A stretch of DNA of 64,000 nucleotides from Dethiobacter sp. (GTDB taxonomy: Bacteria; Bacillota; Dethiobacteria; Dethiobacterales; Dethiobacteraceae): positions 1 to 64,000 of the forward strand of contig JAGXRN010000009.1 of the NCBI GenBank assembly GCA_018335875.1, read 5' to 3'. Positions 36,897 through 43,359 of this stretch are shown here, in pieces; the first letter of the stretch is position 1; each line of letters starts with the position of its first letter. The position numbers were made by a program, and so were the translations under genes. A model generated the notes under the pieces. That model searched no databases. It saw nothing but the letters and a program-made list of their open reading frames with translations, and was not told the origin of the DNA.

Positions 36897-37312
36897 AAAT
36901 CCTACCCTCTCACAATTCTCCACACATATACAGTTTGGCTCAAACCGCCGAAATTATTACAATAACCAAAAATTAAACGCCGGGAAACTGTTCCCGGCGT
37001 TTATGAGTTTGTTGAAAAAATCATAGTTTGACTCAGGTAATATGATATTCCCGAGAATATACTCAGAAAATATGACAGAAAACCCGTCCCCGTGTCTTAT
37101 ACCCGTAGTTTTTTTGTTTAGAAGGACCCTCTAATCATTGACGCAAGAAAACACATTACTGCATATGATATAGTGCATTTGCTTCTTTGATATACATACA
37201 ATTGGCAGTACTTGGGAAAGTTATCAAATAGAATGTTCGCTTTGAGAGGCGAACTTCTGCCGTGTTCGTGTTTAAGCACGAACATATTGATTACGCGGTG
37301 AGGAGCGATTCT
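36897..37312. other. 416-bp intergenic region with hairpins and a repeat copy
   Basis: No gene is seen. It holds a perfect 12-bp hairpin, AAACGCCGGGAA-ACTG-TTCCCGGCGTTT (36975-37002); copy A of the direct repeat (about 37070-37106); and two tandem dyads just before the SatD-like gene: GTTCGC-N8-GCGAAC (37234-37253) and TGTTCGTG-N6-CACGAACA (37263-37284). Confidence 0.7.
37070..37106. repeat. direct repeat copy A flanking the SatD/DUF3307 module
   Basis: ACTCAGAAAATATGACAGAA followed by AACCCGTCCCCGTGTC. About 30 of 37 positions match the copy at 39340-39377. Confidence 0.55.
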
Positions 37313-37693
37313 ATGGAATACATGACGATTACCTGCGATATAAAAAATTCATGTAAACTGAATAATCGGGAAGAAGTTCAGATAGAACTGATTAATACGC
37401 TTAAAGAAATAAACAGGCAGTATGCACATGTTATAGCTTCCCCTTTTATCATTACCCTGGGGGATGAATGGCAAGGGTTAATGAATGTGGAATGCAATTA
37501 TAATGAGATTATTGCGTTTATTCAGGCCAGAATGCCTGATATTACGTTTTATACAGGGATTGGGATCGGCGAAGTTACGATATCTAACTTTGAGCTAACT
37601 GTAAACCAGCTGGACGGGCCTTCTTTTCATAAAGCCAGGAAAGCAGTAAAACTCGCAAAGCAACTTGATTACTCTCTTGTCCTGATTAAATAA
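37313..37693 (+). CDS. SatD-like protein, N-terminal domain only
   Basis: GAGGAG seven bases before the ATG at 37313 gives 126 residues. 'ITCDIKNSCKLNNREEVQIE', 'PFIITLGDEWQGL', 'FYTGIGIGEVTI' and 'QLDGPSFHKARKAVKLAK' align with the first half of the full-length SatD protein at 38452-39192. The C-terminal HTH half is absent. It converges on and overlaps the DUF3307 gene by 8 bp. It could be a stand-alone regulator, a decoy of its neighbour, or a truncated duplicate. Confidence 0.75.
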   Translation: MEYMTITCDIKNSCKLNNREEVQIELINTLKEINRQYAHVIASPFIITLGDEWQGLMNVECNYNEIIAFIQARMPDITFYTGIGIGEVTISNFELTVNQLDGPSFHKARKAVKLAKQLDYSLVLIK

Positions 37694-38450
37694 AAATTAA
37701 ATATCTCTGGATAACAAAACCAATAAAAAAGGCCACAAAGATACTAATAAAGCTGCCAATTAAAAAATACTCTACAAACGCATCATCTTTAAACTTGCGG
37801 AATCTTGCTACTGATTTTACACCTAATATTAAGCCGGCCCAGGAAGCATTATTGGTAGCTACAACGGTAATTACCAGGAGCCTTTCCAACAGGCCGATAA
37901 TGTATCCACCATCTTGAGCGCCCGCATCTTCGATTTGGCTTCCTCTCATTTTTTTTATGTATATGCGGATAAAAATACCGGTTCCCCAAATCCCGACTAC
38001 CAGGAGATTGAATACGGCAAGTATACGTATAAAGGCCCCGGTGCCGGCTAGACTTTCTAGCTGACGTATGAAAGGATTCAGCCATGGAGCAGGTGCCAAT
38101 TTTTGCTTTAAAATAATTACTAAAAACATGATTACCGTGATATGCAGTAACTGGTCAAAGAAAAATGAAACAAGGCTATCCTTCCCAAAACGTGCTTTCA
38201 TCTTGTCTATCAAATAATGAGTAGCTGAAATAATAATTAGGAAAAACAACAAAAATGGTGTCCAAACGTAATGGATAATGGCAAAAACCCCCGCGAAAAA
38301 ATGAATAAGTATATGCAGTCGTAAACCCCGTTTTCTTTCGTCCGGTTCATCCGAAAACCTCATGTCGCAAAGTTTTGTTGTTTGAAAAGGGAAGTCAGCC
38401 AAAAGGTGAGCGAGCAATAGTGACAAAACCAGCGCAATTTGCGTCAACAT
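37686..38450 (-). CDS. DUF3307 domain integral membrane protein
   Basis: AAAGGAG upstream of the ATG at 38450 gives about 254 residues. The N-terminal 'LVLSLLLAHLLADFPFQTTK' and 'GLRLHILIHFFAGVFA' are the DUF3307 signature (conserved His/Asp in membrane helices). Four to six helices follow. It starts directly after the satD stop, and SatD-DUF3307 pairs recur in other genomes (family knowledge). Biochemistry is unknown; the conserved acidic/His residues in the membrane hint at an enzyme or transporter. Confidence 0.82.
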   Translation of the reverse strand: MLTQIALVLSLLLAHLLADFPFQTTKLCDMRFSDEPDERKRGLRLHILIHFFAGVFAIIHYVWTPFLLFFLIIISATHYLIDKMKARFGKDSLVSFFFDQLLHITVIMFLVIILKQKLAPAPWLNPFIRQLESLAGTGAFIRILAVFNLLVVGIWGTGIFIRIYIKKMRGSQIEDAGAQDGGYIIGLLERLLVITVVATNNASWAGLILGVKSVARFRKFKDDAFVEYFLIGSFISIFVAFFIGFVIQRYLIFI

Positions 38451-38451
38451 A

Positions 38452-39192
38452 CTAGCTCCTTTCCAGGAGACAGTAGTACGCCAACAGGCTTTCAATCACT
38501 TCTCCGTTTCGCTTAATTGTAAATACTTCAGCACTATTTAATCTTTTACTAATATTGCTGATAGATTTTTTTTCTGTTTGTTCCACTATTTTTCTGTATG
38601 AACCATACTTTAAGTAATCAAGGTATATCTTTTTTTGATTAAATGTCATTTTATTTTTTAAAATTTCATTGTTTTCAATAATAATGTTTACTAATTCATT
38701 GAGTGTAATTGAATTAAGAAAGTTTATATCTCCGGACAGTTCTTCAGAAGTGGCCGCTATTTCATGCTTGAAGGAATTTCGACCTGTTTCATCAACACTA
38801 AAATATACTTTTTTTCTTTTACTGGTAACGCGATCCTTTTTCGCAGATTCAACTGCTTGTCTGGCATGGTGGAAACAAGGTCCATCCATATTACGAAGAT
38901 CATTGTCCAGTGAAGTGGACAATGGGCCAATACCCATCCCTGCATAAAGTTCAATGTCATCATTCCAGAACATACGTTGAAAGGCTTCCACAATGTCGTA
39001 AATTTTAGCTGGCTTATGGGTAATTACCTGCCACTCATCTCCAAGCGTGACGCCCGCCGGTGCAGCAAGCATTTCCTTGTAACGCCCGTTAAATTTAATA
39101 ATATTATTATTGAGGCGGAGTTGGAGCTCGTTTCGCTTATCACTTCGCCTTGAGCCAACAAGATCAAAGATGACTACACCATACAATGACAT
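38452..39192 (-). CDS. SatD family protein
   Basis: 246 residues. 'VVIFDLVGSRRSDKRNELQL' at the N-terminus, 'GVTLGDEWQVI', 'AGMGIGPL' and 'MDGPCFHHARQAVESAKK' define SatD. The fold vaguely recalls a nucleotidyl-cyclase-like ferredoxin domain. The C-terminal 70 residues contain a helix-turn-helix ('YGSYRKIVEQTEKKSISNIS'). It has a good promoter and is the first gene of a two-gene operon with DUF3307. Family members are stress- or acid-associated in lactic acid bacteria, but the molecular role is unknown. Confidence 0.82.
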   Translation of the reverse strand: MSLYGVVIFDLVGSRRSDKRNELQLRLNNNIIKFNGRYKEMLAAPAGVTLGDEWQVITHKPAKIYDIVEAFQRMFWNDDIELYAGMGIGPLSTSLDNDLRNMDGPCFHHARQAVESAKKDRVTSKRKKVYFSVDETGRNSFKHEIAATSEELSGDINFLNSITLNELVNIIIENNEILKNKMTFNQKKIYLDYLKYGSYRKIVEQTEKKSISNISKRLNSAEVFTIKRNGEVIESLLAYYCLLERS

Positions 39193-40163: not shown

Positions 40164-41024
40164 CTAATCATGCGGAGGATTTTTTTTTATCTTCCTGAGA
40201 GCATGTGAAACAGCTGCCTTAACCTCCTCATCATACCGCCTGTTGTCAATTTGTTTTGGCTCACTGCCTAAACTTCCGGAGAACAGATAGCAGGGGGGCA
40301 GCAGATTGAGCGCAGATGTGATTATTTCAAGCCTGCACTGCCGGCAGGAGCAAATCTTATTTTTATCCAGCGTAAAGGTTTCATCAAGGCGTCGGACGAC
40401 AAGTTCTTCCATTAAATTATGCAGCCCGGGCGGTTCACTGCCGGCAGTGTTTGGAGTACTTTCTGATTGTTGGGGATTATTTCGCTGCAGAAAACCCGCA
40501 GCCCAACCCGTTGCAAGCAAAAAGAACTCCTGGTTTTGATCCATTGTTTTACTGTACTCATCAAGCAGCATTTCTTCGAGGCGCTTGGCCGCCCTAATCC
40601 TGCTGCGTACAATACGCAGTGACTGCCTGATAGTAATTTTGTGGCCGCCTTCGATATCCAGTGTGCTTGGCGCCGGTTCCTTCCCGACGCCTGTTATTGA
40701 CCGCAGGCGGAAATAACCATAGGCAGGGTCGCATCCTACCCGGGGGGTGGAAGCTTTAAGCGGGAGAAATATCAGAAAAGGTGAGAAAGCAAGGGGAGTC
40801 AGATTTACCTGGCCAAGCAGGGAGCCATATTTGCGCCTGGCATCCTGTATATTAATAGCAAAAAACCTGGCAAGCTGTTCTACAAATGAGCGCAACCCCC
40901 GTGACTGCCAGCCGGTTGTACCGTCCCGGTAAAAAAGCGTTATTCCCTGTCCTACACCTTCACGGTAGGATGGAATAAAAGCTGCAATACTCAGTACCTC
41001 CTGAAATGACAATTTGTATGCCAA
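40164..41024 (-). CDS. ComK-like / ComFB-like fusion protein
   Basis: AAGGGGG six bases before the TTG at 41024 is preferred to the track ATG. About 286 residues. Residues about 45-125 ('LARFFAINIQDARRKYGSLL', 'PFLIFLPLKASTPRVGCDPAYGYF') follow the pattern of the competence regulator ComK (RFF...RK...I.LFP..S.R...CGW). After a variable linker, residues about 210-255 match ComFB: 'LMEELVVRRLDETFTLDKNK' and ICSCRQCRLEIITSALNLLP, including its zinc-type cysteines. Neither family normally carries the other domain. A competence or late-development regulator is inferred. Confidence 0.65.
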   Translation of the reverse strand: MAYKLSFQEVLSIAAFIPSYREGVGQGITLFYRDGTTGWQSRGLRSFVEQLARFFAINIQDARRKYGSLLGQVNLTPLAFSPFLIFLPLKASTPRVGCDPAYGYFRLRSITGVGKEPAPSTLDIEGGHKITIRQSLRIVRSRIRAAKRLEEMLLDEYSKTMDQNQEFFLLATGWAAGFLQRNNPQQSESTPNTAGSEPPGLHNLMEELVVRRLDETFTLDKNKICSCRQCRLEIITSALNLLPPCYLFSGSLGSEPKQIDNRRYDEEVKAAVSHALRKIKKNPPHD

Positions 41025-41109
41025 AAAAGAACCCCCTTCATCCATATGTAGGGGGACATTCTACTATATGCAGTTAATTGTGCCTGGGTTCCAATGTAGG
41101 TAGCGTATG

Positions 41110-42252
41110 CTACTTGTCCCTTTTAAGATATGAAATCATATTTTGATAGGCCTTATGGTCAATATTCAGTGTTGCATTTATCTCTTTAAACCTGTTGGAG
41201 ACACTTCCTGCTGAGACCCCGTACTCCTGTGCCAGCTCTTTTTGTGTGAGGTTCAGGAAATGGAAGCGCGCCAGGCTGTACTCGAGAGCTGCAGCCCAGG
41301 TTTCATACTTTGCAATGCGTGGCACATCTGGGTATACCGAGTTGATATAGTCAAGCCAGATCGCCTGAATATCATCAAAAAACCCCTCGTCATAGCAATC
41401 ACTGCGGCGCATGTTTTCCATGGCGCAATCCATGACCTGCTGCCATTCTTCCCGCCAGACAGGCGTTTTAACCGGGTAGCTGTCAAGATCCATACTCTTT
41501 AGCTCGCCATCGTTAAAGACCTGCACAGTGCCGCCCTGTCCCATGTTTTTAAGTTCCAGCAGCGCCAGTTGGCGAATTCTTTCTTTGATCCACGGATTTT
41601 TTATAAAATCCTGCAGCGCCCTGCAAGCTGCTTCACCACCCTGTGTGCCGTAAAAACGGAGAATATTTTCTTTGAATTCGTCTGAACCATGATACAGCCG
41701 GTTGCTTAGTGCCTGCCGGAAGCCGGTGCTGCCGGAAAACATACTGCTTAGCTCTTCAGGGCTCTCAGAGCGAAGTATTTCTTCCAGCACTAAATCCTTC
41801 TCCGCGTAAGCAGGTAGATCACCTGGCGCCATGTCGTCCTCCAGTGCATCAAGAAGCTCCATGGCCTCAAAAACCATATCTCCTTCGGGATCGGCATCCA
41901 GATATCGCTGCAGATATTCCCTTGATTTGTTCATATCCTCCAACAGCCCGTAATTTATGGCCAGTAAAAAATAACAGTCGGCAAGGGTATTGTCAAGATC
42001 TAATATAATATGGTGAAAAATACGGTTAGCTTCCTTGAGACGTCCCAATTTGCTGAGCAGGCAGGCAAGGTTGTAATGATTATATGGATTCTTTGGTTCC
42101 ACTTCTACAGCTTTCCTGAAATGCATGAGGGCTTTGTTTAATTTATTCTTCTGATAATAGGTCATACCCTTCTGCAAATAATAACCCGCTTCCCGCTCAA
42201 AAGGTACAACTTTATACCTATTGGCGGCTCTTTGCTCTCTGGAGCTTTTCAT
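41110..42252 (-). CDS. TPR protein with C-terminal helix-turn-helix
   Basis: The start at 42252 (GGTGAG upstream) gives about 380 residues. Three or four tetratricopeptide repeats lie at residues about 25-135 ('AGYYLQKGMTYYQKNKLNKA' onward). A middle helical part follows, and the last 40 residues hold 'TQKELAQEYGVSAGSVSNRF', a clear HTH. It is probably a cytoplasmic regulator or scaffold that couples protein binding with DNA binding. It is located between the ComK/ComFB-like gene and yhaM on the same strand. Confidence 0.78.
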   Translation of the reverse strand: MKSSREQRAANRYKVVPFEREAGYYLQKGMTYYQKNKLNKALMHFRKAVEVEPKNPYNHYNLACLLSKLGRLKEANRIFHHIILDLDNTLADCYFLLAINYGLLEDMNKSREYLQRYLDADPEGDMVFEAMELLDALEDDMAPGDLPAYAEKDLVLEEILRSESPEELSSMFSGSTGFRQALSNRLYHGSDEFKENILRFYGTQGGEAACRALQDFIKNPWIKERIRQLALLELKNMGQGGTVQVFNDGELKSMDLDSYPVKTPVWREEWQQVMDCAMENMRRSDCYDEGFFDDIQAIWLDYINSVYPDVPRIAKYETWAAALEYSLARFHFLNLTQKELAQEYGVSAGSVSNRFKEINATLNIDHKAYQNMISYLKRDK

Positions 42253-42281
42253 GTTCTCACCACCGAACTCTGTTATTTTAA

Positions 42282-43262
42282 TCAACCTGTATCCGCATTC
42301 ACTAAACCGAGGAACACACTGCGATCAAGCAACCGATCCCATTCCGTCCAACCGGTGGCATCACTCCCCCTGCTTACTACTTTGGCAAACTGGTTGAGTC
42401 TGGCTGAAGTCAGGTCTGCATGAAACAGTGCAAAGGCTTCAAATGTCTTTGGCACCTCCGGTGAACCCCATTCTTTGTGTCCGTGATGACTCAATATCAA
42501 ATGAGACAGTTCCATTCCCAGCTCTTCCGGGAAACAATCGATGACAGCCAATTCTTTGTCTATCATTTCCTTTCCCAGTGAAATATGGCCAAGCAATTTC
42601 CCTCTGGTGGTTAGTTCAAAAGTAAGGCTGTTGACATCATATTCATCGATCTTGCCTATATCATGCAAAAGTGCGCCGCTGTAGAGGAGTGAAGCGTTAA
42701 GATTGGGATATAAAGTTAAAATATGGCGGCAAAATGAGGCAACCTCCAGGGAATGTTCAAGCAATCCTCCCAGGTAATTATGGTGTACCGAGCGGGCTGC
42801 AGGCGCCTTTGCAAACCGGGATAAAAATTCCTCATCTTCAAAGAACGCTCTCAGCAATCTCCCCAGGAAAGGATCGGCAACTGCGCCCAAAACATTATTT
42901 AATTCGGCAAGCATATCGCTCTCATCTCTTGGAGCTACTGCCTGAAAGTAGCGTCTTTCCGCATTGCTCACAGCCTCAAGGCTGTAGATAACCAGCTGCA
43001 AGCCCCTGTATTCGCCAACCTCGCCCCGCACATGCACAATATCGCCTGTTTTAAACTTGGAGGCCACTTCCGGCCCTTTTTCCCACACTACCGCACGGAC
43101 AGTACCGGAAATATCCGCAAGCGTCATCCTCAGGAACTGCTCACCTGAGCGGTTTGGCTGGTTAAAAGAGACAAGTGATTTTTCAGTGACGAGAAATTCG
43201 CTGTCCACAGCAACTCCAACTTTAAGATCTCTGACAAATTGCTTCAACTCACAGGCCTCCAT
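42282..43262 (-). CDS. yhaM: 3'-5' exoribonuclease YhaM
   Basis: About 326 residues from the ATG at 43262, the usual YhaM length. An N-terminal OB-fold ('FLRMTLADISGTVRAVVWEK') is followed by an HD domain with 'HHNYLGGLLEHSLEVASFCR' and 'SGALLHDIGKIDEY' (metal ligands H..HD). YhaM trims RNA and single-stranded DNA 3' ends in Bacillota. The Shine-Dalgarno is weak (AAAGAAAGAG). Confidence 0.9.
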   Translation of the reverse strand: MEACELKQFVRDLKVGVAVDSEFLVTEKSLVSFNQPNRSGEQFLRMTLADISGTVRAVVWEKGPEVASKFKTGDIVHVRGEVGEYRGLQLVIYSLEAVSNAERRYFQAVAPRDESDMLAELNNVLGAVADPFLGRLLRAFFEDEEFLSRFAKAPAARSVHHNYLGGLLEHSLEVASFCRHILTLYPNLNASLLYSGALLHDIGKIDEYDVNSLTFELTTRGKLLGHISLGKEMIDKELAVIDCFPEELGMELSHLILSHHGHKEWGSPEVPKTFEAFALFHADLTSARLNQFAKVVSRGSDATGWTEWDRLLDRSVFLGLVNADTG

Positions 43263-43359
43263 AACTCTTTCTTTGACACTATATTCCCCACAGCTGACGT
43301 TTTTCCTCTTTCGGAGAAGTAAATCAATAAAAACGAGCGGTCTTTTACACAAGAAAAAA

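What the first reader, a model, noticed from the sequence alone, without database searches (positions are those of the whole stretch)
40164..41024. Fusion of a ComK-like domain with a ComFB-like domain
The N-terminal half follows ComK (RFF...RRK.GSL...F.P.LIFLPL.AS.PR.GCDP) and the C-terminal part is a ComFB-type zinc domain (ICSCRQCRLEIITSALNLLP). In Bacillus these are separate: ComK is the master regulator and comFB lies within a ComK-controlled operon. A single protein carrying both, outside Bacilli, would be a new architecture and hints at a regulatory role for ComFB.
Basis: partly seen in the sequence, partly recalled or inferred. Interest (0 to 1): 0.7.

Follow-up and report, generated by a model that had tools for sequence, protein, structure and literature searches.

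The report
ComK-like domain fused to ComFB
A small group of anaerobic bacteria (class Dethiobacteria) makes one protein joining a relative of ComK, the master switch for DNA uptake in Bacillus, to ComFB, a family that senses cyclic-dinucleotide signals, so the two may form a ready-made, signal-controlled gene switch.

Summary
The minus-strand gene 40164-41024 (TTG start; an in-frame ATG lies at 41045) encodes about 286 aa. Its C-terminal third is a ComFB domain (Pfam 4.6e-16). The N-terminal half has no direct Pfam ComK hit, yet it is a distant ComK relative: it matches an orthologue (9.8e-21) that passes Pfam's ComK cut-off (5.8e-7), its family aligns collinearly with Bacillaceae ComK (hhalign score 35; shuffled controls at most 17), and independently predicted structures share secondary-structure class at 129 of 142 aligned residues. 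Both models rank LytTR DNA-binding domains highly in the PDB, a link I found in no paper. The fusion is a single open frame in 4 of 97 class genomes, all one family; in two further members the genes overlap or are adjacent. ComFB is a published c-di-AMP/c-di-GMP receptor and obligate dimer. The best reading is a one-component regulator: a ComK-type DNA-binding domain dimerised, and in the sister proteins probably tuned, by ComFB. The window's own copy has lost the conserved loop RYVVT-G-YSKAD but kept the zinc motif, so its ligand response may be gone. Targets are unknown, the neighbourhood is not a competence operon, and DNA or ligand binding is untested.

The parts
40164..41024 (-). ComK-like/ComFB fusion gene, likely TTG start at 41024 (longest frame from ATG at 41045)
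   Evidence: Open frame; SD-like AAGGGGG at 41030-41038; same start region in relatives that lack an upstream ATG
40536..40997 (-). N-terminal ComK-family domain (residues about 17-170 of the 293-aa frame); predicted LytTR-like beta domain plus long C-terminal helix
   Evidence: phmmer to G021 orthologue 9.8e-21, which passes the PF06338 cut-off; hhalign to ComK; AF2; VIA LytTR rows
40425..40535 (-). Low-confidence linker (residues about 171-207)
   Evidence: pLDDT under 50 at residues 185-206; 15-27% identity to the other fusions
40176..40421 (-). C-terminal ComFB domain; keeps CxCxxC and the terminal His, lacks the RYVVT-x-x-G-x-x-YSKAD loop
   Evidence: PF10719; structural match 4wai Z 8.4 and CdgR-c-di-GMP 8hja Z 8.0; alignments
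41110..42285 (-). TPR protein with C-terminal sigma-region-4-like HTH, immediately upstream; conserved neighbour of the ComK-like gene
   Evidence: Pfam; present beside it in all family members with enough flank and in G021
42282..43352 (-). YhaM-like 3'-5' exoribonuclease (OB + HD), conserved next gene upstream
   Evidence: NCBIfam NF010007 2.3e-52, below its cut-off; synteny

Best explanation
The protein is a one-component transcription regulator. SHOWN BY COMPUTATION: the N-terminal domain is homologous to ComK and is predicted to have the same fold, which resembles LytTR DNA-binding domains. The C-terminal domain is ComFB. The two are one polypeptide in four genomes and overlapping or adjacent genes in two sister genomes. 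INFERRED: the ComK-like domain binds DNA at target promoters. The ComFB domain, an obligate zinc-binding dimer in B. subtilis, takes the place of ComK's C-terminal activation tail, dimerises the protein and holds it in a DNA-binding geometry. In the sister fusions with an intact loop, c-di-AMP or c-di-GMP binding to ComFB changes that geometry and so switches transcription. In the window's own copy, loop loss suggests that dimerisation remains but ligand control is lost or altered.
For: ComFB Pfam hit and structural match to ComFB and CdgR-c-di-GMP. ComK homology by four routes: a bridging orthologue over the Pfam cut-off; hhalign 99.9% to a group that is itself PF06338-positive, and 97.5% from that group to ComK; direct N-family versus Bacilli ComK score 35 against a control maximum of 17; N-profile ranks 16-29 of 33 ComKs above about 1000 decoys. 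The two AF2 models agree in 91% of 142 aligned DSSP states, slid controls at most 44%. LytTR rows lead the ComK model and are the best N-domain rows in the fusion. Fusion/overlap/adjacency in sister genomes. The ComFB-bearing members form one part of the family tree (84/87 support), and the remaining N-domain members on the tree have no ComFB at all. The genome has one DAC enzyme, five GGDEF matches and one ComEC. ComFB binds c-di-AMP/c-di-GMP and CdgR acts through the transcription factor DevH (PMC12313861; PMC13075795). B. subtilis ComFB is an obligate Zn dimer (PMC4381287).
Against: No DNA or ligand binding has been shown for any member. The window copy's ComFB is 38-39% identical to the other fusions while its N-domain is 51-55% (in the others ComFB is better conserved than the N-domain), and its conserved loop is gone. 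The gene neighbourhood is YhaM, TPR-HTH and pyrimidine genes, not competence genes. No K-box excess in the window. LytTR similarity is not significant by sequence. Zn-type ComFB (with cysteines) has not, to my knowledge, itself been shown to bind cyclic dinucleotides; the characterised receptors are cyanobacterial and 8hja lacks the cysteines.
Confidence: 0.66

Rival explanations
1. ComFB is only a dimerisation and zinc (redox or zinc-sensing) module. The fusion is a constitutively dimeric ComK-type regulator with no nucleotide control, most clearly in the window's copy.
For: Window copy keeps CxCxxC and terminal His but loses the RYVVT-G-YSKAD loop. B. subtilis ComFB is an obligate Zn dimer whose discussion proposes zinc or redox sensing.
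Against: Three of four fusions and both split partners keep the loop at high identity, which suggests a constraint beyond dimerisation.
Confidence: 0.22
2. Gene accident: two neighbouring genes were fused by a small indel, and the product simply does both unrelated jobs or the C-terminal part is decaying.
For: In G009 the two frames overlap by 53 nt with a G7 run at the junction, so one base makes or breaks the fusion. The window's ComFB diverges faster.
Against: The fusion is kept in four assemblies across three genera as a single intact frame with conserved ComFB in three, and none of these genomes has a second ComFB.
Confidence: 0.1
3. The N-domain is not ComK-related; the resemblance is a chance motif or a common beta arrangement.
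For: No Pfam ComK hit for the window protein itself; direct hhalign probability of only 52-69%.
Against: Bridging orthologue above the curated ComK cut-off, shuffled controls, decoy ranking and 91% matching secondary structure.
Confidence: 0.04

Closest known systems
ComK (PF06338), Bacillus competence master regulator
   Same: Collinear domain, same predicted fold, same secondary-structure order
   Different: Only about 10% identical; lacks ComK's C-terminal tail; carries ComFB instead; class Dethiobacteria; no competence operon context; targets unknown
ComFB (PF10719), B. subtilis ComFB (4wai)
   Same: Zn-type CxCxxC + His/Cys domain, same fold, 83 of 83 profile positions
   Different: Fused to a ComK-like domain rather than encoded in comFABC; the window copy lost a conserved loop
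CdgR / cyanobacterial ComFB (8hja), c-di-GMP and c-di-AMP receptor
   Same: Same fold (Z 8.0, rmsd 3.5 over 80 residues); acts on a transcription factor (DevH)
   Different: Acts in trans and lacks the cysteines; here the receptor-type domain is in cis with the putative DNA-binding domain
LytTR domain regulators (AgrA, ComE, 3d6w)
   Same: Similar predicted fold to the ComK domain (Z 7-8)
   Different: No significant sequence similarity; no receiver domain here
Other one-component regulators with a cis cyclic-dinucleotide site (named from general knowledge: BldD, VpsT, CLP)
   Same: Concept of a DNA-binding domain controlled by a ligand on the same chain
   Different: Unrelated domains on both sides

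Membership tests
ComFB (PF10719) | Profile score over curated cut-off | tested here: met
   59.1 bits vs 25, E=4.6e-16
ComFB (PF10719) | Zn site CxCxxC plus distal Cys/His | tested here: met
   CSCRQC and C-terminal His in the alignment; metal binding itself not tested
ComFB (PF10719) | Four-helix fold like 4wai/8hja | tested here: met
   VIA Z 8.4 and 8.0 over 80-82 residues, top two rows
ComFB, conserved loop (not required by the Pfam cut-off) | Loop RYVVT..G..Y.KAD | tested here: not met
   Window copy reads CYLFS--GSLGSEPKQ; met in G002, G003, G011
Cyclic-dinucleotide receptor | Binds c-di-AMP or c-di-GMP | not testable with these tools
   Needs ITC or DRaCALA
ComK (PF06338, strict Pfam sense) | Profile score over curated cut-off | tested here: not met
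   No hit for the window protein; orthologue L018 of the same family meets it at 29.8 vs 22.3 bits
ComK superfamily (wider sense) | Significant full-length profile-profile or transitive homology | tested here: met
ComK superfamily (wider sense) | Same fold as ComK | tested here: met
   91% DSSP agreement between independent AF2 models; no experimental ComK structure was found
ComK (functional) | Binds paired AT-boxes and activates late competence genes | not testable with these tools
   Window K-box count inconclusive
LytTR (PF04397) | Sequence profile match | tested here: inconclusive
   hhalign 16-21 vs shuffled maximum 16-18; no Pfam LytTR hit
LytTR (PF04397) | LytTR fold | tested here: inconclusive
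   Z 6.8-7.9 for the fusion N-domain, 7.2-8.1 for the ComK model with the next unrelated row at 4.8; Z of 7-8 can arise between unrelated folds

The most novel reading that the evidence does not exclude
The ComK superfamily is a divergent LytTR-type DNA-binding family spread through Bacillota, and in Dethiobacteria it has been wired in cis to a ComFB cyclic-dinucleotide receptor. This would make a second-messenger-controlled ComK, and would imply that ComFB in the Bacillus comF operon feeds back on ComK in trans.
Probability: 0.3. Interest if true: 0.85.

Novelty: new variant of a known kind. Interest (0 to 1): 0.66.

Why it matters
What ComFB does in Bacillus is an open question: it is expressed in competent cells but its deletion has no transformation defect (PMC4381287). 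A natural fusion to a ComK-family domain points to a direct functional partner and gives a single protein in which DNA binding and c-di-AMP/c-di-GMP binding can be assayed together. It also shows that the ComK family extends well beyond Bacilli and suggests a fold (LytTR-like) for a regulator for which I found no solved structure.

Tried and rejected
Direct Pfam and NCBIfam ComK hits for the window protein: none. PDB sequence search of the full protein: only a weak ComFB hit. Rfam: nothing in the window. K-box enrichment: inconclusive. Competence context around the gene: not found; comEC lies on another contig downstream of RNase HI and a lipoprotein-like gene. LytTR homology by sequence: not significant. 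Local frameshift as the cause of the missing ComFB loop: the other frames at that place, read by eye, do not contain it, so divergence rather than a sequencing slip is likelier. Fusion elsewhere in the phylum: in 398 sampled genomes the full-length profile found single-frame fusions only in this family; the listed matches elsewhere are separate halves, but the match table was cut. ComFB and ComK-like genes show no general linkage elsewhere in the class. Foldseek on the whole fusion model gave no match below E 0.001.

Full report
WHAT IS THERE. The minus strand of the window holds an intact frame of 293 codons from an ATG at 41045 to a stop at 40164. Many orthologues have a stop codon just before that G-rich stretch and no upstream ATG, so 41024 is the likelier start. 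Residues 209-290 match Pfam ComFB over the whole profile, E=4.6e-16. Nothing in Pfam or NCBIfam matches the N-terminal half.

THE N-TERMINAL HALF IS COMK-RELATED. The protein was searched in 59 related genomes. Forty-nine have a match, and most hits to the first 170 residues are stand-alone proteins of about 180-230 aa. One of them, L018 in G021, matches the window protein at E=9.8e-21 and itself passes Pfam's curated ComK cut-off with 29.8 bits, E=5.8e-7. PF06338 also hits full-length proteins in several other genomes of the phylum that form a group of their own, distant from Bacillaceae ComK. The family aligns to that group at 99.9% probability, and that group to Bacilli ComK at 97.5%. Family against 33 Bacilli ComKs directly: 141 collinear columns, score 35.1, versus a maximum of 16.9 in 30 column-shuffled controls and about 16 for reversed alignments. 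An HMM of the family ranks 16 ComKs (29 when the bridging group is added) above every one of about 1000 decoys. ComK is the only Pfam family besides ComFB matched by more than one of 34 family members, although 8 of its 10 were chosen by their ComK hits.

STRUCTURE. AlphaFold2 gave a confident N-domain in the fusion (most blocks above 90 pLDDT) and a confident model of a Bacillaceae ComK (mean 93.9). Through the sequence-profile alignment, 129 of 142 aligned residues have the same DSSP class, versus at most 44% in slid controls. The C-terminal domain's best structural matches are B. subtilis ComFB (Z 8.4) and the cyanobacterial CdgR-c-di-GMP complex (Z 8.0). For the N-domain the best rows are LytTR domains: ComE Z 7.9, 3d6w Z 7.5, AgrA-DNA Z 7.0. 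The ComK model alone gives LytTR for the first six rows (Z 8.1 to 7.2), then drops to 4.8, and Foldseek's top two are LytTR. Sequence profiles do not confirm this, so it is a suggestion. I found no paper making the link.

DISTRIBUTION AND ORIGIN. The class is Dethiobacteria, judged from records named Dethiobacter. Of its 97 genomes held, 61 have the ComK-like domain, 45 have ComFB and four have both in one frame: G000, G002, G003, G011. Three of these were retrieved independently by name: JAGXRM010000027, DLMZ01000050, QLUR01000001. These four have no second ComFB. In G009 the two genes overlap by 53 nt in different frames with seven Gs at the junction, and in G016 they are 133 nt apart. On the N-domain tree, members whose genome has a ComFB group together (84/87 support; fused ones need two changes, one origin not excluded), and the other family members on the tree have none. 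In 398 genomes across the phylum both halves are common, but the listed matches outside this family are separate.

CONTEXT. A TPR protein with a sigma-region-4-like HTH is immediately upstream in every family member examined with enough flank, usually preceded by a YhaM-like exoribonuclease. Pyrimidine biosynthesis genes follow downstream. This is not a competence locus. The genome does encode ComEC, one diadenylate cyclase and GGDEF proteins.

THE WINDOW'S COPY IS UNUSUAL. In the three other fusions, both split partners and stand-alone ComFBs, the motif LPPRYVVTxxGxxYSKAD is strongly conserved; the window copy has LPPCYLFS--GSLGSEPKQ. The zinc motif and terminal histidine remain. Its C-domain is 38-39% identical to the others while its N-domain is 51-55%; among the other three the C-domain (57-79%) is better conserved than the N-domain (47-66%). 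The part of ComFB that CdgR shares (LN.LPP.Y...G..Y) includes this loop, so loss of ligand binding is a reasonable inference, not a demonstration.

MECHANISM. ComFB of B. subtilis is an obligate, zinc-binding dimer without a known transformation role (PMC4381287). Cyanobacterial ComFB/CdgR binds c-di-AMP and c-di-GMP (PMC12313861), and CdgR acts through the transcription factor DevH (PMC13075795). ComK is an activator whose last 25-35 residues are needed for activation (PMC3536758). Here ComFB occupies the place of that tail. The simplest working model is a dimeric one-component regulator whose DNA binding or activation is set by ComFB, with nucleotide control likely in the sister fusions and doubtful in this copy. 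Steps shown: homology, fold agreement by prediction, fusion. Steps inferred: DNA binding, dimerisation, ligand control, targets.

VERDICT. It is a new variant of known families rather than a new kind of system.

Noticed in passing
L062 (Bacillaceae ComK) and window 40536-40997: AF2 models of ComK-family domains rank LytTR DNA-binding domains first in the PDB (ComK model Z 8.1-7.2, next row 4.8); no paper found linking ComK to LytTR.
   Followed up: partly
L211 (G009:C4:177000-178600): comK-like and comFB genes overlap by 53 nt in different frames with a GGGGGGG run at the junction; a one-base slip would create the fusion. Assembly error, slippage or phase variation cannot be told apart.
   Followed up: partly
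L199-L204 (G458): About eight matches to the ComK-like family in one genome, several with long low-complexity inserts.
   Followed up: no
window 41110-43352: TPR/sigma-region-4-like HTH gene and YhaM-like exoribonuclease are syntenic with the ComK-like gene across the family; the TPR-HTH protein is uncharacterised and a candidate functional partner.
   Followed up: partly
window 37262-39192: SatD-like protein (minus strand), a similar protein on the plus strand and a DUF3307 protein sit between the Sir2 gene and the 36.9 kb gene; absent from that place in the related genomes compared, so possibly a mobile insertion.
   Followed up: no
L042, L046, L050: PF06338 (ComK) scores some aminotransferase-like proteins just around its cut-off (profile positions 5-69), probably false positives of the Pfam model.
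   Followed up: no
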